A DNA stretch of 64,000 bases from Eunapius fragilis (lineage: Eukaryota > Porifera > Demospongiae > Spongillida > Spongillidae): assembly GCA_963681505.1 (NCBI GenBank), contig OY811971.1, positions 979,501 through 1,043,500 on the forward strand. The letters run 5' to 3'. Of the stretch, positions 28,728 to 52,873 are shown piece after piece (position 1 is the stretch's first letter; each line of letters begins with the position of its first letter). A program made the position numbers and the translations under genes. The notes beneath the pieces were generated by a model that saw only the letters and a program-made list of their open reading frames with translations, had not been told where the DNA came from and made no database searches.

Positions 28728-28941
28728 GGAGTCCATGCATCCGAAAGGGGTCCATTCCATATTGGTTGATGAGTTAATGTGCGCGCATGCTTTGCGGGAC
28801 GCACGCGTGATACCACACACATACATGTGCATAATCATAAGCAATGATTTTAAAACCTTTATCATAATTCATGCCAAATGGCGATTATCTTTCCCAAGCT
28901 GTTGTAAACAATATCAGTGTCCACAAAAACTAGGGCTGCAG

Positions 28942-31863
28942 ATGGCTCACGAGGCGACAAACGCTGTGGATGTAATCAGTGCTTCGTATGTCGAAGGCAA
29001 GGAGCGCGGTGCCGCAGTAGGTGGTGCCGTTGGAAGCATCGCAGGTCCTATGGCAACTGCAGTTGGAGAAAAGGTGGGTGGAGTAGGTGGCGGTATTGTT
29101 GGTGGAGCAGTTGGTGTTTATAGATGGTTTCGTGCTGCCAGTGAGCGTAACGTTGGGCCAGAGAGAATAACACCTACGGTTGGGCCAACCATGTACACAA
29201 TAGATGATAAAACATGGGAGATTATTTGGACTAATTTACAATCTAACGAGTCAAAAAAGAGGAGTGATTATTTAAAGCAACCGGAGGTCACTAATCAGAC
29301 GGAGGAGAGGAGAGCTAAGGAGATGTGTGATAGATATGACACAGCCATCAGAAATGGAGTGGGGATGATGTCTTGTGGAAGAGTGTGTGTTCTTGGTGTA
29401 TCTGCTGAACGAAACTGGATACCAATAGGTATAGAAAACTGCGGAATATATACACTGGACAGGAATAATACGTTGTGCCTCATGTCTGAAGAAGGACAAC
29501 TGAAGGGGTTAGCTACACTTGCAAACGCAGTTATTATTCAAAATCAGAATCCAGACCAATACAAAGATTTCAAGGAGTTGATGAAAGCCGTTAAGGCATT
29601 TCAAATAGACATTCCTCACATTCAACCTAATGTTACAGTTGAGGACAAAATCCGCATTGCAGTTAAGAATATATATTCTTCTGATTCAACAACCACACCG
29701 CCATCTTTGATCCATGCGACATGCCATTCCAGGGAACAGCTGAAGCATATGCTGCCTCTATTTATAACATCACGTTCTTTATTCATCGTAGAGGTCAATC
29801 ATGCAGAGAGAGAAGAAGCACATAGTAATGATGACAAGATAATAACTTCAGTGCGGGAAGATGTGTATCGCTGCATTGAATGCATCACCGGTACCCTGCT
29901 AGAAAAGGCACGGAAACTTTACGAAATGCTATATGACAATGAATTGCTGAATCCTGCATTGGCCAATAAATTTCTCTGCCCGTATCCCAAGATAGTTATA
30001 GTGGGAACACATATCAGTGATAACGGGCGCTCGCAGGTGCAGTCTACAATCGAAAATATAGAGAAATGGGTTCGTTTGAACTGCTCGGATGCTGCGAGGG
30101 AAAAAAAAATTACGGTTGTTAACACAGTGGATCAATCTGCTGATGACTGTATTCAAGCCCTACTTACAGACTTTATTACCAAAGATCTGATAATACCAAC
30201 TCCATTGTCATGGGAACTATTTCGTCAAATGTTCTCGTACGTTACAAAGAATGTTCCAATAATTCCAATAGAGATAGCGGCAACTATAGCCTCACTATGC
30301 GACATAGCTACTGATGACTTTCCCAGTGTGCTAAACTTTTATCACGAGCATGGAGCATTTCTCTATTATGCAGATGTTGAGTGTTTACGTAATATCATAA
30401 TTATTGATCCAAAATGGTTGCAGGAAAAGCTAAGTGTAATTCATATAGCTAACCAGCCATTGTCACCAATGTGGGAAAGGCTAACCACACAAGGCATATT
30501 GGTTGCCCCACTTTGTGAGGAATTGTGGCACTCAGAGGAGGTGAAGAATCTTCCATCTGGTATGGTGAAGTTATTGGAAAAGTATCATCTGGCTGCTCCC
30601 ATTGCTATGGACCAGGAAATGTGTGACTTTATTGGAGACAAATATTTTGTACCATTTGTATTGAAATCAAAAGGGGATGCCCAGCTTTATAAGATGCCGG
30701 ACAGGCTTTACACCGCTCCAATTCACATAACCTTCCCCAAGATTAAACATCTTCCCCCTGGCATATTTAATTGCTTGATTGTTGCCTTAGCAAGCAAAAA
30801 AAGAGGAAAAATGGCAAATGGTGAAAACGAAAATTTTAGAATTGATTTCAAATGTGAGATGTTGTGTGATCAAATTTCATTTTGGTTTGGACATGGTTTT
30901 CGTGATAAGGTTATTTTAAGAGACGAAATCACCTCAATAAGCGTAGTTGTGGAACGTTTGAAATACTGCGGAGATGAGTATCTAGCTAGCAACTTCTGGT
31001 TAACATGTCAGAAAATTTTGACTTCATTGGCAACTGCATTGAAACAAGCAGTGCAGCAAGTTTGGAACATTGAAGCCAAGCTAGCTTTTTGTTGTACCTG
31101 CCAGTCTTCAGAGGGAGGATTACCTCATTATGTTTCTATTGATACTGACACCAAAAGCACCTGCAATACCTTGAGATGTGAGGAAAATCGTGAATACACA
31201 CTTAATGGTGATGAGCACTGGTGGTTAAAAATGGCTGATACACACTATAAAGTGGGGAAAGTTTTTAAAAGTGAAGTCAATTATCTCGCAGCATCCCTTA
31301 CACAAAAAGCTGACCAGGAGAGATTAATTCAAGCACTGGAGATCACATCTGTTGGCACTGGTTCAGATTTTACACTTCTAATGAATGGGTGGGCTGATAC
31401 TACTGGGCCAGATGCTCGTATCCACTTGGTGTACCATCTCATCAGAATTAACTTGAGAGAAGTAGCAGATGGAATAAACAAGGGAAGGCATAGAACAAAC
31501 GTAAACATTGAAAATGATCCGAAGCAAGGTAAAGTACATACTATATATGCATGATTGTTCATTTAACCAATCAAATCACTTCCTTTTGCAGTGCAATATA
31601 TATTTAAGAAGTATTATGCTGATTTTTGCACGAAGCTCAATCCTAATGACATCACAGCTAAACTTTATTCAGCAGACATTATATCTAATAAAGAGAAAGA
31701 CGAAGTCATCTTCGGAGGGCCGAGGCAAAAAGCCGAAATATTAGTAAATACGTTGGAACGGGCTGTTATGAAGGACTGCAATAACTTTACTACTTTTCTG
31801 GACATTTTATGGAAAGATGGCACTTATAAAAAACTTGTAGAGGATATTTGGGCTGAATTTTAA
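28942..31863 (+). CDS. Roc/COR-like protein with death-like and CARD-like C-terminus (paralogue 1)
   Basis: Two exons, 28942-31528 and 31592-31863, with a 63-bp GTAAAG...TTGCAG intron; 952 residues. Order: a glycine-zipper segment (about 21-60, GxxxG repeats, like membrane-inserting helices); a Roc-like region without a P-loop but with PKIVIVGTHISD in the G4-like position (about 353); a COR-like block PTPLSWELFRQMF ... VLNFYHEHGAFLYY ... IIIDPKWLQE (419-490); a long region with conserved Trp/Cys; a death-like segment (about 794-862); and a CARD-like final exon (863-952, FKKYYADFC, EKDEVIF, FLDILW, LVEDI). The start was chosen at MAHEATN because the paralogue aligns from here; the upstream open frame runs out of a hAT element. 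This combination suggests a cytosolic innate-immunity or cell-death regulator. Confidence 0.8.
31529..31591 (+). other. 63-bp intron of paralogue 1
   Basis: Starts GTAAAGTACATAC and ends TCCTTTTGCAG. Base for base the same as the intron of paralogue 2 at 34430-34492. Confidence 0.85.
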
Positions 31864-33369
31864 ACGACAGGTCGAAAGACATTGTAGGATAATTTGAAAT
31901 GCATTACACTTTGTTGTGTTGTTATCGAGAGTTACCTTAACTATCATATAGGATTTGACCCCGATTATGAATGTCATTTTAAAAACGCGACCCGCTTCTA
32001 ACAAGACTCCTGACGAGCGGATGGCTTGGGTGATATGGTTTACTAGCTTTATCCTTGCTAACTTAAGTCATATTTATATCCTGGAGGCTTCACGACCATG
32101 CAGCACTAATTGCATTGATACAGAGCCACCATAACTTGGTGCACTGTGAACCTTACTAACATGAAATGGCCTGTTCTAGTAAAAGATGAAGTGGGGTTTG
32201 GGCATGTGGAGGTGTTGTGGGGGGGGGGGTTGCTAATTTGGCAGTAGTTATAGTAACAGTGCCGGCGATAAAGAGTGGGAGGAGGGAAGATGAGAGTGAC
32301 AGGACTGTTTTGCCTTTTGTGCAGCCATGCAATATCCAAAATCCACTCGATCCAGACCCCCTTCACAGTGCACTAGCTCCTGAACCCATTCCGTTACATC
32401 ACAACTGCTCCTGCTGAATCCCCTGAAATACTATCTCAATATGCCTTGCCCCGCCCCCCCCCCCACACACACACACACACACACTTCCAAGCAACAATAA
32501 ATCCCATCCCCTCACCATAGATGACAGAGGGGATTGTGTAGGGGGTATTTTAAGGTTACATTCGAGATGGGTGTGAGGAGTTGAGTAGGATCGTTTGAAA
32601 CCAATCGATAATTTAAAAGACTTTTTAAAAAGCAGTAGTGATTGCGTGCTAAAACTTTTATACACATTCAAGAAAGGAAAAAACACACTCTTGTCAACGG
32701 TAATAATAGCTGGACAGAGCTAGCAGGCTAGTGGTAGTACTCAACGATCAAGAAACAGACTATTCTCGTGAGGCTGTGGGCGCTCGCCGTTCTTTTGTGA
32801 ATTAATTCACATTCCCTTCGAAATAATGCAGGTTGTCAACCAAACGCGTGGTGCACATCACTATACTTGGACGCTAAAATGTAAGGAATGTGCTACAAGC
32901 CAGTATAGGTTTTATAGTACTAGCTTTATTTGCATACTCGATATGTTATACGGGTGGTTCTGAGCGCGTTATTGGCAAAACTAGAATGGCACGCTAAAAT
33001 ACAACCATTTTAAGTTGGGGTATCGGATTTCAGAAAGAATCACGCGCCGATTAACTAGATACTGTCCCGCAAAAAGAGCGCATCCAACATTGGGCATTAT
33101 CGCTGAACTTGGGCAAAAATAAAATCACGACCAGAACTCTTGATCCTGAAGAACTTATTAAAATACACATATACAATAACCTGCTTGCGTAATACAGTGA
33201 AACGTGCTTATCCATTTTTGTTCTAAAACGCCAGCGAATTTTCGTACCCCTTTCACGCTTCGATGTACGTGTGATTCGCAGCAGGTCGGATGGCACACAT
33301 AAAAATGCAAATATGTATGGCTCACGCGTTGCCAATCCCTTTATAATTTATCTCTGGCTGTACTAACCT
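31864..33369. other. Spacer between the convergent paralogues, left part
   Basis: 3' untranslated sequence similar to that of paralogue 2 for about 70 bases, then unassigned DNA with a G-run (32219-32230) and a CA/GT microsatellite near 32463-32484. No gene recognised. Confidence 0.4.
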
Positions 33370-33710
33370 GTCCAGACTTCAAAAAGCCCTTCATACTGCA
33401 AACAAATGCCTCCGACAGAGGGGCAGGGCGGTGCTTTGTCGTCAGGGTGACGACGCAGAAGAACACCAACTACTACTTCAGTAGAAAATTTCTGCCTTCT
33501 GTTATCGAAAAGGAATGCCTGGCAAATTGGCAATAATGCTAGCTGTCGCTGCTTTCGAGGTTTATCTGCTGGGACGAAGTTTTGTTATTCATACCGACCA
33601 CAGGTCGCTTGAGTGGCTCGATAAGCTGAAGAATTATAACCCTCGTCTGTGTAGGTGGAGCTTAGCAGGTAGTTTGCTGCAAAAGAAGAGAAATGATGTG
33701 TGACGGATGC
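33370..33710 (+). pseudogene. Ty3 RNase H fragment
   Basis: Frame one reads PDFKKPFILQTNASDRGAG (first catalytic Asp replaced by Asn) and VIEKECLA. After a shift the next frame reads AAFEVYLLGRSFVIHTDHRSLEWLDKLK..CRWSL. Closest within the window to the RNase H of the Gmr1-like element (AFRVYLLGRKF). Truncated at both ends, with no LTR seen. Confidence 0.75.
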
Positions 33711-34160
33711 CGTCACTTGGGACTTGTGAAATGTGTATTTTCAGTGCGCATGCGCATTATAAGGTATAAATTATCGAAGAAAAGGAACCTTTTTTTGCCT
33801 CACTGTTGTCAATCTATACGTACGATCCGCTACATTTCCCCCGCCCCCTCCCCGGATCCACCGCTGGGTTTTGTTTGCAGCAGCTTTACATATGTAACCT
33901 ATATCGTGAACAATGCAACTAAATCAAAAAACTTATTGCGAAAGAGATTTGATGGGTGTATTAGTCCATGTGAAAGCAAGTACATTCAGCAACCTCTCTC
34001 TTTGAATAAAACCAGCCACTGGTTAATTCTTCTGTTATGATGCATTGTAGAAACGGCCAGCACGAGATAATGTATCGGGTTAGTATGTTACACAACATTG
34101 CTATAACAATACAAAATGTAATGCATTCAAACCATCCTACAATGTCTTTCGACCTGTCGT
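33711..34160. other. Spacer between the convergent paralogues, right part
   Basis: Unassigned, then the 3' untranslated sequence of paralogue 2 (from about 34090, matching 31864-31935 inverted). Confidence 0.35.
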
Positions 34161-37130
34161 TTAAAATTCAGCCCAAATATCCTCTACAAGTTTTTTATAA
34201 GTGCCATCTTTCCATAAAATGTCCAGAAAAGTAATAAAGGTTTTGTAGTCCTTCGTAACAGCTCGTTCCAACGTATTTACTAACACTTCTTGCCTCGTCC
34301 CTATTGCGAAGATGACTTCATCTTTCTCTCTTGTAGATATAACGTCTGCTGAATAAATTTTAGCTGTGATTTCATCGGAATTGAGCGTCGTGCAAAAATC
34401 AGAATAATACTTCTTAAATATATATTGCACTGCAAAAGGAAGTGATTTGATTGGTTAAATGAACAATCATGCATATATAGTATGTACTTTACCTTGCTTC
34501 GGATCATTTTCAATGTTTACATTTGTTCTATGCCTTCCCTTGTTTATTCCATCTGCTACTTCTCTCAAGTTAATTCTGATGAGATGGTACACCAAGTGGA
34601 TACGAGCATCTGGCCCAGTAGTATCAGCCCACCCACTCATTAGAAGTGTAAAATCTGAACCAGTGCCAACAGATGTGATCTCCAGTGCTTGAATTAATCT
34701 CTCCTGGTCAGCTTTTTGTGTAAGGGATGTTGCGAGATAATTGATTTCACTTTTAAAAATTTTCCCCACTTTATAGTGTGTATCAGCCATTTTTAACCAC
34801 CAGTGCTCATCACCATTAAGTGTGTATTCACGATTTTCCTCACATCTCAGGGTATTGCAGGTGCTTTTGGTGTCAGTATCAATAGAAACATAATGAGGTA
34901 ATCCTCCCTCTGAAGACTGGCAGGTACAACAAAAAGCTAGCTTGGCTTCAATGTTCCAAACTTGTTGCACTGCTTGTTTCAATGCAGTTGTCAATGAAGT
35001 CAAAATTTTCTGACATGTTAACCAGAAGTTGCTAGCTAGATACTCATCTCCGCAGTATTTCAAACGTTCCACAACTACGCTTATTGAGGTGATTTCGCCT
35101 CTTAAAATAACCTTATCACGAAAACCACGTCCAAACCAAAATGAAATTTGATCACACAACATCTCACTTTTGAAATCAATTTTAAACTTTTCATTTTCAA
35201 CATTAGCTATTCTTACTTTTTTTCTGCTTGCTAAGGCAACAGTCAAGCAATTAAATATGCCAGGGGGAAGATGTTTAATCTTGGGGAAGGTTATGTGAAG
35301 TGGAGCAGTGTAAAGCCTGTCCGGCATCTTATTAAGCTGAGCAGTATCCCGTTTAGATTTCAATACAAATGGTAGAAAATATTTGTCTCCAATAACGTCA
35401 TACATTTCATGTTCAATATCAATGGGAGAAGCTAAATAATATTTTTCCAATAATTTTATCATACCAGTTGGAAGATTCTCTACTTCCTCTGAGCGCCACA
35501 CTTCCTCACAAAGTGGGACAACCAATACGCCTTGTGTGGTTAGCCTCTTCCACATAGGTGATGAAGACTGATCGACAGGGGTAAAAATCTTGTTTAGCAT
35601 TTCTTGCAACCATTTTGGATCAATAATTATGATATTACTTAAATACTCAACATCAGCATAATAGAGAAATGCTCCATGCTCGTGATAAAAGTTTAGCACA
35701 CTGGGAAACTCATCAGTAGCTATGTCGCATATTGAAGCTATCGTTGCTGCCTTCTCTATTGGAATTATTGGAACATTCTTTGTAACGTACGAGAACATTT
35801 GACGAAATAGTTCCCATGACAATGGAGTTGGTATTTTCAGATCATGGCTAATAAAGTTTGCAATTTGTGCTTGAATATCATCAGAAAGCTGATCCACTTT
35901 TGCTATTATATTTTCCCTGCAAGCATCCGAGCAGTTCAAAATAACCCATCTCTTTATATTTTCGATTGTAGACTGCACTTGCGAGCGTTCTTTATCAGAG
36001 ATGTATGTTCCCACCATAACTATCTTGGGATACGGGCAGAGGTATTGATTGGCCTTTTCGGGATTCAATTCTTTCTCTTTCAGCTTTGCGTACAGTGCAC
36101 GCGCCTTTTCAGACAGGGCACCTGTGATGCATTCAATGCAGCGATACGCATCTTCCCGCTCTAAAGTTATTATCTTGCCATCATTAATATGTGCTTCTTC
36201 TTTCTCTGCATGATTGACCTCTACGATGAATAAAGAACGTGATGTTATAAATAGAGGCAGCATATACTTCAGCTGTTCCCAGGAATGGCTCGTCGCATGG
36301 ATCAAAGCTGGCGGGGTGGTTGGTGGATCAGAAGGATGATTTATAACGCCATTCTTAATACTGGTAATTATATCCTTAACTCTAATGCAGATTTTGTCAT
36401 CAACTGTAGCATCAGATGTAATGATAGACGGGACACCTCGAAATGCAGTTTGGAACTTGCTCGCTGATTTCTTCCCTACCTCTCTGATAAGTTTGTATTT
36501 TCTTGGATTTTTTATAACAACATCACATACAAGTGTAGCTAACCCCTTCAGTTGTTCCTCTTGTGACATTGGGCACAACATATTATTCTTGTCCAATGTA
36601 TGCATACCGCGGATTTGATGTATATCTATTGGCACCAGTGATTTTATCCAGTTTCGTTCAGCAGATACACCAAGAACGCACACTCTTCCACAAGACATTT
36701 TCGCCACTCCATTTTTGATCGCTTCATCGTACGTAGCATGCATTTGTTCAACTCTCCTTTCCTCCGTCTGATTAGTGATCACATGGTGCTTTAGATAATC
36801 ACACTTACGCTTTGTCTCTAGACTAGATGCTTCAACATTATTCCAAATCTCCCGCCATGCTTCATCAGTTATTCCGGTTGGACCGCTTGGTCCATCTTTA
36901 TGCCCACTAAACAATGCAAACAAACCGGCTACTCCACCAACAATGCCGCCACCTACCAAACCCACCGTTGCTCCAATTGCAGTACCCACAGGACCTGCAG
37001 CTAAAGTTCCAACGGCACCTAGTGCGGCAACACCAAGCCCCGCGCCTCCGGCAATCGAAGCACCGATTTTCACTCCTTTAGGAACTTCGTTTTCAAAAAA
37101 AATGTTTTCCATCTCACGTCTGCCAGCCAT
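34161..37130 (-). CDS. Roc/COR-like protein with death-like and CARD-like C-terminus (paralogue 2)
   Basis: Two exons, 37130-34493 and 34429-34161, with a 63-bp intron; 968 residues. It has the same architecture as paralogue 1: glycine-zipper segment (about 15-65, GAGLGVAALGAVGTLAAG), no P-loop, PKIVMVGTYISD, COR block, death-like segment, CARD-like last exon. It is convergent with paralogue 1 with a 2.3-kb spacer. The N-terminal halves differ strongly in the zipper and the Roc-like region, while the stretch from the COR end to the exon 1 end is nearly identical. Start chosen at MAGRREMEN, matching paralogue 1; an upstream in-frame Met (37151) is possible. Upstream flanks of the two genes are also similar for about 160 bp. 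Confidence 0.8.
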
Positions 37131-37526
37131 CTGCAGCAAGTTAACGCCCAAGATTTGTGGTTACCGATATTGTTTTGGGAAAGATAATCGCCATGTGGCA
37201 TGAATTATGACAAGCGTTTAAAAATCATAGCTATGAGTATGTGTGCGGTATCACGCGCGCGTCTGCAAACGCATGCGCGCGCAACTCATCAACCAACATA
37301 GTCAACAAGTGAATTAAATTGAAGTTGGACTGTGAGTAATTATGCTGTGTAAGCCTCTTTACACGTTCAAATACAAAATGAGTCACTGAACGCATAGAGG
37401 AACGTGAAGCCATATTTGAACGCATCGGTGTTCAGAAGTTAAGCCTCTTTCCTCTCCTCCCTCCCTCCCTTCCTCCCTCCCTCCCTTAATATCCCAGCAT
37501 AACATCACTTCAAGAGCCGGGATTTT
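37131..37526. other. 5' flank of paralogue 2 and CT-rich tract
   Basis: Bases 37131-37300 resemble the 5' flank of paralogue 1 (28770-28941), so they may hold the shared promoter or a non-coding first exon. 37445-37487 is a CCCTCC tract. Confidence 0.4.
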
Positions 37527-37861
37527 GGTATATGTTACCTGGTATGGCAGTACAAACTACTGATTATAGAAAGCACATGGAAGTGCTGAAGTCTGTACTG
37601 AGTCCAAGGTACTGGAACACCATTATGGAGTGAGGCAGGATATGGGATAGGGACAGCTAAGACGGTCGGCTCCATGTTCATGCCCTGTTAATTAATGTAT
37701 ACTAATGCATAGTCCATCTCAAAGAAGGTCGGCACCTGTCCCTATTCTATTTCCCTGCCCCGCTCCATAAAGGTGTTCCAGTATACCTTGGACTCAGTAC
37801 AGACTCCAGCACTTCCATGTGCGGCTTCCATGTGCGGCTTTCTTTAATCTGTTGTTTGCAC
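37527..37861. repeat. Foldback repeat family F, cut by the assembly gap
   Basis: The block around AAGCACATGGAAGTGCTGAAGT (37570-37625) is repeated inverted at 37765-37860. The right arm runs into the N gap. A diverged partial copy lies at 57060-57215. Confidence 0.65.
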
Positions 37862-38061
37862 NNNNNNNNNNNNNNNNNNNNNNNNNNNNNNNNNNNNNNN
37901 NNNNNNNNNNNNNNNNNNNNNNNNNNNNNNNNNNNNNNNNNNNNNNNNNNNNNNNNNNNNNNNNNNNNNNNNNNNNNNNNNNNNNNNNNNNNNNNNNNNN
38001 NNNNNNNNNNNNNNNNNNNNNNNNNNNNNNNNNNNNNNNNNNNNNNNNNNNNNNNNNNNNN
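37862..38061. other. Assembly gap (200 N)
   Basis: Exactly 200 N, probably a placeholder of unknown size. It lies between two foldback repeats, sequences that commonly defeat assembly. Confidence 0.95.
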
Positions 38062-43819: not shown

Positions 43820-44700
43820 GGGGTGGGGCCAGCGGTGGCGCAGGTGGGAGCAGCGGAGCAGGGGCCAGCGGTGGAGCTGGGGCAAGCAGAGCGTGGGCCA
43901 GTGGAGCAGGGGCCAGCAGTGGCACAGGTGGGAGCAGCGGAGCAGGGGCCAGCAGTGGCGCAGGTGGGAGCAGCAGAGCTGGGGCCAGCGGTGGCACAGG
44001 TGGCAGCGGAGCAGGGGCCAGCAATGGCGTAGGTGGGAGCAGCGGAGCAGAGGCCAGCAGGGAGCAGCAGAGCAGGGGCCAGCAGTGGAGCTGGGGCAAG
44101 CAGAGCAGGGGCCAGCGGAGCAGGGGCCAGCAGTGGCGCAGGTGGGAGCAGCAGAGCAGGGGCCAGCAGTGGCACAGGTGGGAGCAGCAGAGCTGGGGCC
44201 GGCGGTGGCGCAGGTGGGAGCAGCGGAACTGGGGGCAGTGGCGAGCTGGGGCCAGCGGAGCAGGGGCCAGCAGTGGCGCAGGTGGGAGCAGCAGAGCAGG
44301 GGCCAGCAATGGCGTAGGTGGGAGCAGCGGAGCAGGGGCCAGCAGTGGCGCAGGTGCGAGCAGCGGAGCAGGGGCCGGCGGTGGCGCAGGTGGGAGCAGC
44401 GGAACTGGGGGCAGTGGCGAGCTGGGGCCAGCGGAGCAGGGGCCAGCAGTGGCGCAGGTGGGAGCAGCAGAGCAGGGGCCAGCAGTGGCACAGGTGGGAG
44501 CAGCAGAGCTGGGGCCGGCGGTGGCGCAGGTGGGAGCAGCGGAACTGGGGGCAGTGGCGAGCTGGGGCCAGCGGAGCAGGGGCCAGCAGTGGCGCAGGTG
44601 GGAGCAGCAGAGCAGGGGCCAGCAGTGGCACAGGTGGGAGCAGCGGAGCTGGGGGCAGTGGCGGAGCTGGGGCCAGAGGTGGGGCAAGCGGGAGCAGGAC
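43820..44700. repeat. 36-bp minisatellite inside Helitron B'
   Basis: About 25 units of a GC-rich 36-bp repeat built from GGTGGGAGCAGCAGAGCAGGG and GCCAGCAGTGGC words, in higher-order patterns. Because the unit is a multiple of three and stop-free, long frames are open on both strands (for example plus 43732-44715, minus 43617-44687). G-tracts on the plus strand are dense enough to suggest G-quadruplexes. None of the frames has flanking protein-like sequence that would make it a credible gene. Confidence 0.85.
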
Positions 44701-46453: not shown

Positions 46454-47068
46454 TTATCCTAGAGATAATTCTCTTGGCCTTTGGATTTGCCTGATATTGA
46501 TCTTGTTTGCATTGGAGGCTAAAATCAGTTCTCGATTTTGATCATAGTAGGCCTTCACGCTATCCTTCTTACTTTCCGGATCAAGGCAGTATTGGGCCTT
46601 CGCGCTCTCCTTCTTACTTTCCGGATCAAGGCAGTATTGGGCCTTCGCGGTCTCCTTCTTACTTTCCGGAACAAGCCGGTATTGGGCCTTCGCGCTATCC
46701 TTCTTACTTTCCGGATCAAGGCAGTATTGGGCCTTCGCGGTCTCCTTCTTACTTTCCGGAACAAGCCAATATTGGGCCTTCGCGCTCTCCTTCTTACTTT
46801 CCGGATCAAGGCAGTATTGGGCCTTCATGCTATCCTTCTTACTCTCAGGATCGGCTTTGTAGCGCTTCCTGTCGCAAGTCTTTTTTTCATGCGCTTCTTG
46901 AAAACTGTCACGCTCCTCAATATCTTGCGACTCGCCAACACAACTGTCATCATTTAACTTTGCGATCTTCTTTGCACGATTCTTTTCTCTTCGCGATCGA
47001 CGTGATGGCTTTTGAAGAAAACAAACCAGACACGTCAAGCTTTTGGTACAACCGTACAACCGTGACAA
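46454..47068 (-). CDS. Helitron protein with 14-residue DPESKK repeats
   Basis: Encodes PSRRSRREKNRAKKIAKLND, an acidic stretch, then seven copies of a 14-residue unit, KAQYxLDPESKKxS, and a tail ending in PRELSLG. The unit is typical of sponge Helitron-like proteins. In Helitron B the ATG lies directly before PSRR; here that codon is changed, so translation would have to start about 20 codons upstream (47068) or be lost. It is basic and likely helical; DNA binding is plausible but unproven. Confidence 0.6.
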   Translation of the reverse strand: MSRLYGCTKSLTCLVCFLQKPSRRSRREKNRAKKIAKLNDDSCVGESQDIEERDSFQEAHEKKTCDRKRYKADPESKKDSMKAQYCLDPESKKESAKAQYWLVPESKKETAKAQYCLDPESKKDSAKAQYRLVPESKKETAKAQYCLDPESKKESAKAQYCLDPESKKDSVKAYYDQNRELILASNANKINIRQIQRPRELSLG

Positions 47069-48009: not shown

Positions 48010-48027
48010 TGGTGTCAGGAGTGGGAT
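48010..48027 (+). other. Primer binding site, tRNA-Leu type
   Basis: TGGTGTCAGGAGTGGGAT two bases after the LTR; complement of a tRNA-Leu 3' end with acceptor GTCAGGA. Confidence 0.75.
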
Positions 48028-51000
48028 GTCTGAAGAAGAGAACATGGACACCTCTGGGGGACCGGCCTCGGGTTCTGCGGGGACAACCAATGTTGTCGTT
48101 GAAAGGGTTGTCAGAATGGCGCTTAGGCCGCCTCCACGTTTCGGCGCTAAAGGCGATTGGAAGCTGTGGTTATCAAGGTTCGAAATGTATGCTACTCAGG
48201 CGAAGATTGCGGAGGACAGCTGGACAAAGGAACTACTCTCGCTGTTAGAGGACGAGCCTTACCGCGTGGTTACGCACCACGGGCTAGCTCAGACGGATGA
48301 CTACGACGCGGTATGTGATTGCATTCAGCGGTCTTATGCTCCTTTAGGTAGCGAGCTGGAGTGGCAGTTGAAGGTGCGCACTAGGGTGCAGAAAGTCGGG
48401 GAGTCATTAATGGAGTTCTGTGGCGCCCTGCGGGGCATGGCAGATAAAGCGTTTCCTGGATGGCCGGCTGAACAACTGCAGGACCTGCTGCGCAATCAGT
48501 TCATTCAGGGTGTTCTTTCTTCGTCGGTGCAGCTAGCGCTGATGAAAGAAGAGCCAAAAACCTTGGACGATGCATTGAAATTAGCCAGTAAGCACGAGAT
48601 GGTTGAAATGGCACAGAAGCAGTTGCAGGCGTTGAGGCAGAAAGAAGTTGTGGCATCTACAGAAGGTGAGAGCGCTAATTCTGAATTGGTTACAGCTACA
48701 CTGCGCCGGGATAAAGAACGAAGTGAAGTGGAGACTCTGAGACGAGAAGTACAAAGGTTATCTGATGAGCTGAAAGGTGTGCAGCGGGGAGCAGGGGATA
48801 AGAGCGAAGAACGGGGGAAAACGGGTCCGGCGTGCTGGAATTGCAAGTCTCGCGGACATGTAAGAAAGGATTGTCCAAAGAATGCACACGGAAGAAGGCA
48901 GTTAAAGTGTTGGGGATGCGGTGAGTTTGGGCATCTTCAGCGTGATTGTTTAAAACGACGTGGTGTCGTGCAAGCGGTAAGCTCATCTATGATGATTCAG
49001 GGAGAGGTTGCAGGGAGAGTGACCAGAATGCTCATTGATACTGGTTCTGGGGTAACACTGATTAGGGAAGATGTATGGCGGGATGTATTAAAAAGTGGAG
49101 GATATGGTTACCATCTAAAAGATCTTAACCATCCTGTGGTTGCAGCAAATGGGCAGCAATTGAACTTGCTAGGTCAAGTTGAATTGCCTTTGCATATTGG
49201 AAGCATACATACTAATTTCCCATTCTTAGTGGCTAGCCAGTTGACACAAGAGTGCTTAGTTGGAGCTGATTTTCTTTCCAAGTTTAACTGCCAACTAGAT
49301 TTAGGGGCAGGAGTACTTGTAGTAGGAACTGAGGCATTGAGCATGGAGACGGATAAAAGGCGACCATCAGTTGGAGTATGTAATGTACAACTTATGGAGC
49401 AGGTGGAGGTTCCTGGGTCATCTCAAATGCGAATTCTCACTGCATGCAAAGGTGGCCTATTTGGTATACAGGGTTCTGTATTGTTAGAGCCCAATGCTGC
49501 ATTCATGGAACGTCATGGCTTGATGGTGGCTAGATCTGTCTCATGTGTGGGTAAAGGGTCTAATGAAGTACTTGTCCAGTTGCTTAATCCTTCTCCTTTC
49601 CCTGTGGTTCTACATAAGCAGGAGGTGGTAGGCACACTGTGTCCTTTGGAGGAACACAGTAGCATGGCATGCTCAGCTGGAGTGGATGCCAATAACACTG
49701 GTGTTCAGAGCATTGTCAAGCAGTTGGTCGATAAGGTGGCAGACGGTGTTACAGACAATGAGAAGGATGAGTTAAAACAGCTGCTATTGAAGTATAGGGG
49801 TATTTTGTCACAATGTGAGGGTGATCTAGGGAGAACAGATTTAGTGTACCATCACATTGATACTGGGGATCATAAAGGAATTAAGCAGTCAGGTCGTAGG
49901 TTGCCTATTCATCAGAGGGAAGAAGTGAAAGAATTGTTGGATGACATGTTAGGAAGGAAGGTGATAGAACCCAGTCAGGGGTCATGGTCAGCCCCAGTAG
50001 TGTTAGTCAAAAAGAAGGATGGGTCCACACGATTTTGTGTGGACTTCAGACGCTTGAATGCTGTGACCAAGAAGGATGCACAACCACTACCTCGTATTGA
50101 CGAAACACTGGATGTCCTGGGGTCTGCACGGTGGTTCTCCTGCCTTGATCTTACAAGTGGATACTGGCAAGTGGAGGTGGCACCAGGAGACCGTGAGAAA
50201 ACGGCATTTGTTACTCCATATGGTCTATTTCAGTTCCGTGTCATGCCTTTTGGTCTAACAAATGCTCCTGCCACTTTTCAGCGTCTAATGGAGCGAGTAC
50301 TAGCAGGACTCCACTGGACCACATGTCTTATCTACCTGGATGATATTTTGATTTTCAGTGCAACAGTCCAACAACATTTCTCAAGGTTGCATGAGATCTT
50401 TGACCGTCTGAAGCAGGCTGGTTTGAAAATAAAACCCAGTAAGTGTTTGTTGTTGCAAAAGAACATAAAATATTTAGGGCACGTTGTGTCAGAGCATGGT
50501 ATTAAAACTGATCCAGACAAAACAAGGTGTATTGCTGATTGGCCTACTCCATCCTGTCTGCAAGAATTGAAACAATTTTTGGGGTTAGCATCATATTATA
50601 GACGATTTGTCAAAAATTTTGCTGCTATAGTAGCCCCTTTAGTAAAGCTTACTGAAAAGGGTCATACATGGCATTGGTCATCTGATTGTGATGCTGCATT
50701 TTTCCTGGTGAAGGAATGTCTGGTAACAGCACCCATATTAGGCTACCCTGTGTTCAACCAGCCATTTATTGTAGACACAGATGCTAGTGGGGAGGGGCTT
50801 GGCGCTGTTCTTTCACAGTATATTTCAGGTGGGGAACGTGTCATTGCTTTTGCAAGCAGGTCCCTGTCAAAAGCTGAAAGGAAGTACTGTGCTACAAGGC
50901 GTGAAATGCTAGCTTTAGTATGGGCAATCAAACATTTTCGTCCATATCTATATGGCAGGCGTTTTACAGTGCGGACAGACCATGCTTCTTTGCGGTGGTT

Positions 51001-52873
51001 GCAGAGTTTCCATGAACCAGAGGGTCAAATTGCTAGATGGCTGGAGTGCCTTTCTGAATATGATTTTGAGGTGGTTCATCGCCCTGGTACAAAGCATACT
51101 AATGCTGATGCCCTGTCTCGTATGCCTTGCCCTCAGTGTCAGTTATTGGTTCAACAGGTTGCTACAGTACCATCTGACATCTGGCTGCCATGTTGGACTC
51201 TGAAAGAACTTGCTGAAGAACAAAGACAGGACCCCAGCATTAGGCAAGTTATTCAATGGCTGGAAAATGAATGTATCCCCCCAGTTTTTCCAAAGCATCT
51301 GTCCTCACATACTCAAGCATTGTGGGCTCAGTCTTATTATCTGGTTCTGCACAATGGGGTGTTGTATCGGCAGTGGGAAGATGTTCCTTGCAAGGGGCTT
51401 CATAGAAGGTTGCAGTTAGTTCTCCCTCCTAATTTGGTCCCAGTGTTATTAGAAGCCTTGCATAGTTCTATTAGGGGAGGTCATTTTGGAACTAATAAGA
51501 CCCTTGCAAAGGTGCGCGAACGTTTTTACTGGGTAGGGCAACGCAAAGATGTAGCTGCTTGGTGTTCTGGTTGTCTGTCCTGTGCATCTAGGAAGCCTCC
51601 ACCTGCTAAATCACGTGCACCCCTGCAGCTTGATCCTGTAGAACGACCACTGCAACGTGTGGCGATGGATATCATGGGGCCTTTACCTGAAACCCCGAGT
51701 GGCAACAAATATGTTCTTGTTATTGCTGATTATTTTACTAAATGGACGGAAGCCTACCCAATACCTAACATGGAGGCAATAACGGTAGCTAAATGTTTGG
51801 TGAACGAATTTATTTGTCGTTTTGGTGTGCCTGAACAATTGCACTCAGACCAAGGTAGAAATTTTGAAAGTAAGGTCATTAAGAACATATGTGACCTTCT
51901 TCAAATTCGAAAAACTCGCACATCTGCATATCACCCTCAATCGGATGGCTTAGTCGAACGATTTAACAGAACTCTGTTAAATTTGTTGAGCACTGCTGTT
52001 GGTGACGCGGAACGTGATTGGGATGTGCACTTGCCATTATTGATGTTCGCGTATCGTACATCTGTGCATGAGACCAATGGAGTAACACCTTTTGAGATGA
52101 TGTTTGGGAGGGAGGTGGTATTGCCGGAGCATTTAATGTTTAATCTACCAGTTAGTATTGAGCAGGTCCCACAGGAAAGTGTCGAATATGTGGACCATCT
52201 GAAGAAAAGGTTCCAGCTGGTGTATCAGTATGTCAGACAGCATGCACAGAAAGGCATGCAGCGTCAGAAGACTGGGTACGATCAGAAAGAGAATACACCG
52301 TGTGTCTTTCAGAGGGGGGGTCATGTATGGCTCTACACCCCTGCTGTTCCAAGAGGAAAGTCTCCCAAATTTCATCGACCGTGGCAAGGACCGTATGAAA
52401 TATTGCGCAAAAAGGGAGAAGTCACATACGATATCCGACGACTGGCACATCCACGAAAAAGATTAATAGTGCATTACAATCGATTGAAACCGTTTTTGCA
52501 GGCAACACCTCATGGAGAACAGGAGTCAAGAGAGGAGGATGAGATGGCAACACCACGGGATGAACAGGAATCAGACGAGGAGGAGGAGATTAAGAAAGAG
52601 CCGCAGGGTTCACAGGCTGATTCACAGGATGAGCAATATTTATACGTGGAAACTAGGAGGCCAGAGCAGAGGCCAGCAGTAGAGGAACACGTACCCCCGC
52701 CTCTACTTATAGCCCCCGCACCCCCACAGCCACCACAGCCGCCTGCTGAGCCAGAACTACCTGAACCTGGAGAACGGTTGCGTCGTTCAACTCGGAACAG
52801 ACATCCTCCAGATTGGTATGGGCAGGTAGTTGTTCATTCTGTACTCACCTATACAAACAGTTTCATTGGATAG
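48026..52873 (+). CDS. Ty3 gag-pol polyprotein, 1615 residues
   Basis: Gag capsid-like helices (about 35-190), coiled coil, and two zinc knuckles CWNCKSRGHVRKDC and CWGCGEFGHLQRDC (about 270-315). Retropepsin LIDTGSGVTLI near 336. RT with [19 protein letters not shown] and YLDD near 769. RNase H VDTDASGEGLGAVLSQ near 915 and RTDHASLRWL near 985. Integrase HHCC (about 1150-1190), then Asp in AMDIMGPLP (about 1213), Asp in HSDQGRNF (about 1273), Glu in SDGLVERFN (about 1309), and a C-terminal VHYNRLKPFL motif. A Glu/Pro-rich tail ends in RSTRNRHPPDWY. No stop or shift; single-frame gag-pol. The start at 48026 overlaps the PBS by two bases; the next Met (ENMDTSG) is an alternative. Confidence 0.95.
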   Translation: MSEEENMDTSGGPASGSAGTTNVVVERVVRMALRPPPRFGAKGDWKLWLSRFEMYATQAKIAEDSWTKELLSLLEDEPYRVVTHHGLAQTDDYDAVCDCIQRSYAPLGSELEWQLKVRTRVQKVGESLMEFCGALRGMADKAFPGWPAEQLQDLLRNQFIQGVLSSSVQLALMKEEPKTLDDALKLASKHEMVEMAQKQLQALRQKEVVASTEGESANSELVTATLRRDKERSEVETLRREVQRLSDELKGVQRGAGDKSEERGKTGPACWNCKSRGHVRKDCPKNAHGRRQLKCWGCGEFGHLQRDCLKRRGVVQAVSSSMMIQGEVAGRVTRMLIDTGSGVTLIREDVWRDVLKSGGYGYHLKDLNHPVVAANGQQLNLLGQVELPLHIGSIHTNFPFLVASQLTQECLVGADFLSKFNCQLDLGAGVLVVGTEALSMETDKRRPSVGVCNVQLMEQVEVPGSSQMRILTACKGGLFGIQGSVLLEPNAAFMERHGLMVARSVSCVGKGSNEVLVQLLNPSPFPVVLHKQEVVGTLCPLEEHSSMACSAGVDANNTGVQSIVKQLVDKVADGVTDNEKDELKQLLLKYRGILSQCEGDLGRTDLVYHHIDTGDHKGIKQSGRRLPIHQREEVKELLDDMLGRKVIEPSQGSWSAPVVLVKKKDGSTRFCVDFRRLNAVTKKDAQPLPRIDETLDVLGSARWFSCLDLTSGYWQVEVAPGDREKTAFVTPYGLFQFRVMPFGLTNAPATFQRLMERVLAGLHWTTCLIYLDDILIFSATVQQHFSRLHEIFDRLKQAGLKIKPSKCLLLQKNIKYLGHVVSEHGIKTDPDKTRCIADWPTPSCLQELKQFLGLASYYRRFVKNFAAIVAPLVKLTEKGHTWHWSSDCDAAFFLVKECLVTAPILGYPVFNQPFIVDTDASGEGLGAVLSQYISGGERVIAFASRSLSKAERKYCATRREMLALVWAIKHFRPYLYGRRFTVRTDHASLRWLQSFHEPEGQIARWLECLSEYDFEVVHRPGTKHTNADALSRMPCPQCQLLVQQVATVPSDIWLPCWTLKELAEEQRQDPSIRQVIQWLENECIPPVFPKHLSSHTQALWAQSYYLVLHNGVLYRQWEDVPCKGLHRRLQLVLPPNLVPVLLEALHSSIRGGHFGTNKTLAKVRERFYWVGQRKDVAAWCSGCLSCASRKPPPAKSRAPLQLDPVERPLQRVAMDIMGPLPETPSGNKYVLVIADYFTKWTEAYPIPNMEAITVAKCLVNEFICRFGVPEQLHSDQGRNFESKVIKNICDLLQIRKTRTSAYHPQSDGLVERFNRTLLNLLSTAVGDAERDWDVHLPLLMFAYRTSVHETNGVTPFEMMFGREVVLPEHLMFNLPVSIEQVPQESVEYVDHLKKRFQLVYQYVRQHAQKGMQRQKTGYDQKENTPCVFQRGGHVWLYTPAVPRGKSPKFHRPWQGPYEILRKKGEVTYDIRRLAHPRKRLIVHYNRLKPFLQATPHGEQESREEDEMATPRDEQESDEEEEIKKEPQGSQADSQDEQYLYVETRRPEQRPAVEEHVPPPLLIAPAPPQPPQPPAEPELPEPGERLRRSTRNRHPPDWYGQVVVHSVLTYTNSFIG

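What the first reader, a model, noticed from the sequence alone, without database searches (positions are those of the whole stretch)
28942..37130. Convergent pair of Roc/COR-like, death/CARD-like genes with a glycine zipper
Both genes combine a GxxxG-rich N-terminal segment, a Roc-like region lacking a P-loop, a COR-like block and death-fold C-terminus. I know no named family with this order. The zipper could insert into membranes, as in some cell-death executors, making a self-contained sensor-executor plausible.
Basis: partly seen in the sequence, partly recalled or inferred. Interest (0 to 1): 0.85.

Follow-up and report, generated by a model that had tools for sequence, protein, structure and literature searches.

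The report
Dead-GTPase ROCO proteins with Death-CARD tails
Two mirror-image animal genes encode probable immune or cell-death signalling proteins whose GTP-binding switch has decayed and which start with a membrane-like glycine zipper.

Summary
The window lies in a 219 Mb eukaryotic, probably animal, genome and holds an inverted pair of two-exon genes. Each encodes a glycine-zipper N-terminus, a GTPase-fold Roc without nucleotide motifs, COR-A, COR-B, Death, and a CARD in exon 2. COR-A passes Pfam; the model matches Roc-COR of C. tepidum Roco and LRRK2; the CARD model matches APAF-1 CARD. Death is sub-threshold in the cluster but above Pfam's cut-off in two C3 paralogues. Both genes belong to a cluster of intact and broken copies in the first 1.6 Mb of a 25 Mb contig. 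A C3 relative keeps the P-loop and C21/C23 relatives keep G1, G3 and G4, so the motifs were probably lost stepwise; the dead Roc is under purifying selection. Precedent: Trichoplax ROCO proteins with CARD and Death domains (PMC4104024). New, as far as I found: a nucleotide-dead Roc combined with a zipper. Likeliest role: a membrane-tethered dimeric scaffold that nucleates Death/CARD signalling (inferred). The executor idea is unproven; 5 of 15 cluster loci show a zipper.

The parts
28942..31528 (+). Gene A exon 1: zipper, linker, dead Roc, COR-A, COR-B, Death
   Evidence: Open frame, Pfam COR-A, relatives; start ATG inferred, frame open upstream to 28735
28996..29130 (+). Gene A glycine zipper (residues 19-63)
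   Evidence: GxxxG count against shuffles, maximum 19-residue hydropathy 1.30
29359..30201 (+). Gene A Roc-like region without G1, G3, G4 motifs (limits approximate)
   Evidence: Alignment with outgroup relatives; fold taken from the model of gene B
30202..30609 (+). Gene A COR-A (residues 421-556)
   Evidence: Pfam PF16095 E 2.9e-11
30610..31242 (+). Gene A COR-B region (limits approximate)
   Evidence: By alignment with gene B and the model match of COR to residue 782 of B
31243..31528 (+). Gene A Death domain (limits approximate)
   Evidence: Sub-threshold Pfam matches in 8 of 13 pieces; C3 paralogue exons over cut-off
31529..31591 (+). Gene A phase-1 GT-AG intron (inferred)
   Evidence: Sequence; similarly placed CARD exons in paralogues
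31592..31863 (+). Gene A exon 2: CARD
   Evidence: Pfam CARD E 2.7e-4, below cut-off; model and Foldseek
34493..37130 (-). Gene B exon 1: zipper, linker, dead Roc, COR-A, COR-B, Death
   Evidence: Open frame, Pfam COR-A, model
36909..37076 (-). Gene B glycine zipper (residues 19-74)
   Evidence: GxxxG count, maximum 19-residue hydropathy 2.06
35826..36707 (-). Gene B Roc-like region (residues 142-435), GTPase fold without nucleotide motifs
35418..35825 (-). Gene B COR-A (residues 436-571)
   Evidence: Pfam PF16095 E 5e-13
34785..35417 (-). Gene B COR-B (residues 572-782, limits approximate)
34493..34784 (-). Gene B Death domain (limits approximate)
   Evidence: Pfam Death E 0.023 for the cut-out piece, below cut-off; homology to C3 exons over cut-off
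34430..34492 (-). Gene B phase-1 GT-AG intron (inferred)
   Evidence: Sequence
34161..34429 (-). Gene B exon 2: CARD
   Evidence: Pfam CARD E 5.1e-3, below cut-off; 81% identical to gene A's CARD exon

Best explanation
The pair belong to a tandemly amplified family of pseudo-ROCO proteins in a eukaryotic, probably animal, genome. Shown by sequence and model: the domain order, absence of the Roc nucleotide motifs beside relatives in the same genome that keep them, a GTPase fold in the model, purifying selection on the dead Roc, and intact and broken copies in one cluster. Inferred: the dead Roc with COR works as a nucleotide-independent, mostly dimeric scaffold; the zipper, where present, anchors it in a membrane or packs copies together; clustering then brings Death and CARD domains together and nucleates a caspase-type or NF-kB-type assembly, in innate immunity, cell death or self/non-self recognition.
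Against: No expression, partner, ligand or output was seen. The zipper is visible in 5 of 15 C1 loci and its model is disordered. Mean pLDDT is 66.6. Death is weak in the cluster copies and its profile found no death-domain chain in the PDB. dN/dS in the Death region reaches 0.98 and 1.50 in close pairs with few changes. No CARD-bearing caspase was found in the six caspase loci read.
Confidence: 0.45

Rival explanations
1. Sensor-executor: on activation the zipper hairpins assemble into a membrane pore that kills the cell directly, with Death and CARD helping the assembly.
For: Hydrophobic, glycine-zipper N-terminus in both genes, in L022 and in P0011, P0013, P0016.
Against: Visible in 5 of 15 C1 loci; gene A's segment has 6 charged residues and a hydropathy maximum of 1.30; no pore activity can be tested here.
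Confidence: 0.12
2. Regulatory decoy: the pseudo-ROCO pairs with working ROCO, Death or CARD proteins of the same genome and dampens or tunes them.
For: Nucleotide site lost but fold conserved; at least 102 COR-A and 150 Death places in the genome offer partners.
Against: Keeps both recruitment domains intact, which fits a signalling platform as well; no pairing was tested.
Confidence: 0.2
3. Zipper as a soluble packing or low-complexity tail with no membrane role.
For: Residues 1-102 are modelled with pLDDT under 50; borderline hydropathy in gene A, and GxxxG spacing of gene B within shuffles at p 0.076.
Against: 7 of 8 segments tested exceed shuffles at p 0.033 or less, and gene B's hydropathy maximum is 2.06 (segments cut by eye).
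Confidence: 0.15
4. Decaying duplicates without function.
For: 7 of 15 C1 loci are broken or truncated.
Against: 8 of 15 keep a long open exon 1; dN/dS below 1 in Roc and COR-A in 28 of 28 pairs.
Confidence: 0.08

Closest known systems
ROCO proteins of Trichoplax adhaerens with CARD and Death domains (PMC4104024, section 5 part 1 read)
   Same: Roc-COR combined with CARD and Death domains, expanded in an early animal
   Different: The text names no glycine zipper and no dead Roc; I could not compare sequences
DAPK1 group of ROCO proteins (PMC6337361 and PMC6320773, passages)
   Same: Roc-COR followed by a Death domain, no LRR
   Different: DAPK1 has a kinase and ankyrin repeats in front, and a Roc that binds GTP; here a CARD follows and Pfam found no kinase in exon 1
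Chlorobium tepidum Roco, LRRK2, LRRK1
   Same: Best structural matches of the Roc-COR part
   Different: LRR and, for LRRK, kinase; working nucleotide site
APAF-1 and NLR-type CARD proteins
   Same: CARD beside a nucleotide-fold oligomerisation module; APAF-1 CARD has the highest TM-scores to the CARD model
   Different: No NACHT or NB-ARC match in genes A and B; CARD is C-terminal
Pfam glycine-zipper segments (PF13488, PF13441)
   Same: Weak, sub-threshold matches of the zipper in P0017 (E 0.015 and 0.082)
   Different: Below cut-off; genes A and B gave none

Membership tests
ROCO | COR domain | tested here: met
   PF16095 over cut-off in both genes and matched in 17 of 17 aligned members
ROCO | Roc fold directly before COR | tested here: met
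   Foldseek and VIA matches over residues 121-783; the alignment given to the model held canonical relatives P0019-P0021
ROCO | Nucleotide-binding motifs G1, G3, G4 of a working Roc | tested here: not met
   G1 0 of 15, G3 0 of 15, G4 0 of 16 cluster-type rows with letters; outgroup rows 4 of 4, 3 of 4 and 4 of 5. Hence pseudo-ROCO
DAPK1 group | N-terminal kinase and ankyrin repeats | tested here: inconclusive
   No match in exon 1; unseen upstream exons cannot be excluded
DAPK1 group | Death domain after COR | tested here: met
   Homology to C3 exons over Pfam's cut-off; sub-threshold in the cluster copies
LRR-ROCO and LRRK | LRR before Roc | tested here: inconclusive
   No LRR match in exon 1; transcripts unknown
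CARD superfamily | CARD profile and fold | tested here: met
   9 of 10 family CARDs match at E<=1, best 4.8e-7, window copies below cut-off; APAF-1 CARD TM 0.79
NLR and APAF-1 (STAND ATPases) | NACHT or NB-ARC domain | tested here: not met
   No match in genes A and B at E<=1; P0017 gives weak P-loop-driven matches only
Glycine-zipper pore formers | Membrane insertion and pore formation | not testable with these tools
   Only spacing and hydropathy were measured
Trichoplax CARD/Death ROCO proteins | Common descent with this family | not tested
   No placozoan sequences were at hand

The most novel reading that the evidence does not exclude
One polypeptide in which a nucleotide-dead Roc-COR dimer gates a membrane-permeabilising glycine-zipper hairpin and carries its own Death and CARD domains: a one-protein animal death device, amplified like an immune or allorecognition locus.
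Probability: 0.12. Interest if true: 0.85.

Novelty: new variant of a known kind. Interest (0 to 1): 0.55.

Why it matters
ROCO proteins are studied as GTPases whose nucleotide cycle drives dimerisation. Here the Roc-COR fold is kept under selection after the nucleotide site was lost, and the same genome holds intermediates (G1 kept on C3; G1, G3 and G4 kept on C21 and C23). That is a natural experiment on what Roc-COR does without GTP. It also adds a ROCO branch to the Death and CARD genes that this genome holds in large numbers, tied to a probable membrane segment.

Tried and rejected
Prokaryotic or viral origin: scans of viral contigs and genome contigs with the family alignment gave no relative. 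Subtelomeric position: no run of telomere-type repeats in the first 9 kb of the contig, so only 'near the contig start' is claimed. CARD exon relatives elsewhere: only the window's own two among predicted proteins. CARD-caspase partner: tblastn of the two CARDs found no CARD in the six caspase loci; 24 caspase places were listed and 6 read. Vinculin, SseD and pentatricopeptide matches and a tape-measure match of the zipper were dismissed as composition or chance. The Death profile found no death-domain chain in the PDB. Zipper as a feature of every copy: rejected, 5 of 15 C1 loci; my composition filter missed two of these, which searches showed. Of the Death matches listed (150 of 380 candidates scored) none overlaps a C1 copy of this family. 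Species identification through papain-family genes failed because the loci were not delivered. Pseudo-GTPase literature showed no ROCO paper by title.

Full report
Setting. The window is G000:C1:979501-1043500 of a 218.9 Mb genome in 24 contigs. Apparent GT-AG introns, a gypsy-like retroelement, caspases and many Death and CARD exons speak for an animal. A sponge or similar early-branching animal is my guess; the species was not established.

The genes. Gene A (28942-31863, +) and gene B (37130-34161, -) are convergent two-exon genes in an inverted repeat of 82.8% identity over 3283 columns, intron included. Synonymous divergence between them is uneven along the gene: 0.45 in the zipper region, 0.71 in the linker, 0.28 in Roc, 0.29 in COR-A, 0.06 in COR-B, 0.016 in the Death region and 0.08 in the CARD. 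This suggests gene conversion of the 3' half, which is inference. The zipper region has dN/dS 0.96 in this single pair, which is not evidence of positive selection by itself.

Loss of the nucleotide site. In one search, G1 is present in 4 of 4 outgroup rows with letters there (P0017, P0019, P0020, P0021) and in 0 of 15 cluster-type rows. G3 is present in 3 of 4 outgroup rows (missing in P0017) and 0 of 15. The G4-like aspartate is present in 4 of 5 outgroup rows (not P0018) and 0 of 16; in many cluster-type rows an aspartate stands one residue later. P0017 is the open frame of the C3 locus L022 of the same genome, with zipper, G1 and THGD but no G3. L025, L026 and L028 on C21 and C23 keep all three; L027 shows no G1 in its frame and L024 has lost G1. 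The tree puts P0017 outside a group of 17 (support of the group of 18: 97/97), c23_2964k next (98/96), and the 16 cluster-type rows together (100/100). P0017 and c23_2964k are long branches, so their order is less sure. The simplest reading is stepwise loss.

Family and cluster. The search with gene B exon 1 gave 54 matches in the genome, with 51 of 88 candidates scored; the strong ones lie in C1:19412-1608897, and short pieces reach 1614035, on a 24,992,492-base contig. I examined 15 C1 loci (13 fetched, plus A and B). A CARD exon follows exon 1 in 12 of 15, in 2 of 2 C3 loci, and in 0 of 5 C21/C23 loci at E 1e-4. Eight of 15 have a long open exon-1 frame (A, B, L009, L011, L012, L013, L014, L016), although L012's zipper lies in another frame than its body; seven are broken or truncated (L010, L015, L017, L018, L019, L020, L021). 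In the 28 pairs of the eight, dN/dS is 0.15-0.78 in the dead Roc, 0.18-0.36 in COR-A and 0.08-0.78 in COR-B; in the Death region it runs from 0.31 to 1.50, the high values from close pairs with few changes, and one pair (A, B) has no synonymous change there. Of 16 proteins found besides gene B, P0002 is gene A; P0003-P0008 match or nearly match C1 copies of this genome by eye; P0017 is L022; P0009-P0016 have no intact match and so probably come from a related species. The direct test (P0011 against this genome) did not complete. P0011 and P0016 report the same longest contig length, which hints at clustering there too.

The zipper. It is visible in A, B, L012, L015 and L019 (5 of 15 C1 loci), in L022 (1 of 2 C3 loci; the hit in L023 starts only at residue 290), and in P0011, P0013 and P0016, with a weaker Ala/Gly-rich segment in P0012. 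I saw none in the fetched upstream DNA of the other C1 loci, but an unrecognised 5' exon cannot be excluded. In 7 of 8 segments tested, GxxxG pairs exceed composition-matched shuffles at p 0.033 or less; gene B is the exception at 0.076.

Genome context. COR-A has 102 places at E<=1e-3, 49 of them over the cut-off (150 of 161 candidates scored), including a large group on C2 that is mostly below the cut-off. The one C2 copy read has G1- and G3-like motifs. Death has at least 150 places. The ROCO superfamily is broadly expanded here, and the dead branch is one part of it.

Literature. Read: section 5 part 1 of PMC4104024 (at least 17 Trichoplax ROCO genes with CARD and Death among the partners; 'no clear examples' of isolated ROC or COR domains). 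Passages only: PMC6337361 and PMC6320773 (three ROCO groups, COR-mediated dimers, a DAPK1 P-loop change that raises its kinase activity), PMC11378527, PMC5094078, PMC8195603, PMC12909245. Listing only: PMC11052575. No held paper has both 'Roco' and 'glycine zipper'. The searches showed no such family in the titles and abstract starts listed; searches had more papers (336 and 208) than the 20 and 12 shown. Most subscription papers are not held.

Mechanism. In C. [quoted passage not shown] By analogy, a Roc that cannot bind nucleotide would leave the COR dimer standing. With a membrane-seeking N-terminus this would be a pre-assembled platform whose Death and CARD domains need only clustering. 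Nothing here shows a ligand, a partner or an output.

Noticed in passing
window 48026-52873 (+): Gypsy-type retroelement polyprotein of 1615 codons with protease, RT, RNase H and integrase matches.
   Followed up: no
window 43899-44658 and 46550-46852: Minisatellite arrays of 36-base and 45-base units.
   Followed up: no
own genome, C2:5.6-17.2 Mb: A large group of COR-A places in open frames of roughly 300-770 codons, mostly below Pfam's cut-off; the one copy read (L038) has P-loop-like and DSGGQ motifs.
   Followed up: partly
L012, L015, L017, L022 (start of the open frame): Frames begin with MG (L017 with MGCGSS), like N-acylated proteins (motif recalled, untested): another possible route to membranes in this family.
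   Followed up: no
L042, L043, L044 (C19): Caspase frames with neighbouring frames that look like double-stranded-RNA-binding domains (my reading, no profile run).
   Followed up: no
own genome, C13:933033-934675: Two caspase frames facing each other, one behind a frame that looks like a DED pair (by eye).
   Followed up: no
window 28759-31920 and 34105-37299: Inverted repeat whose synonymous divergence drops from about 0.5-0.7 at the 5' end to below 0.1 at the 3' end of the genes, as gene conversion would leave it.
   Followed up: partly
window, about 37860-38060: A run of N upstream of gene B.
   Followed up: no
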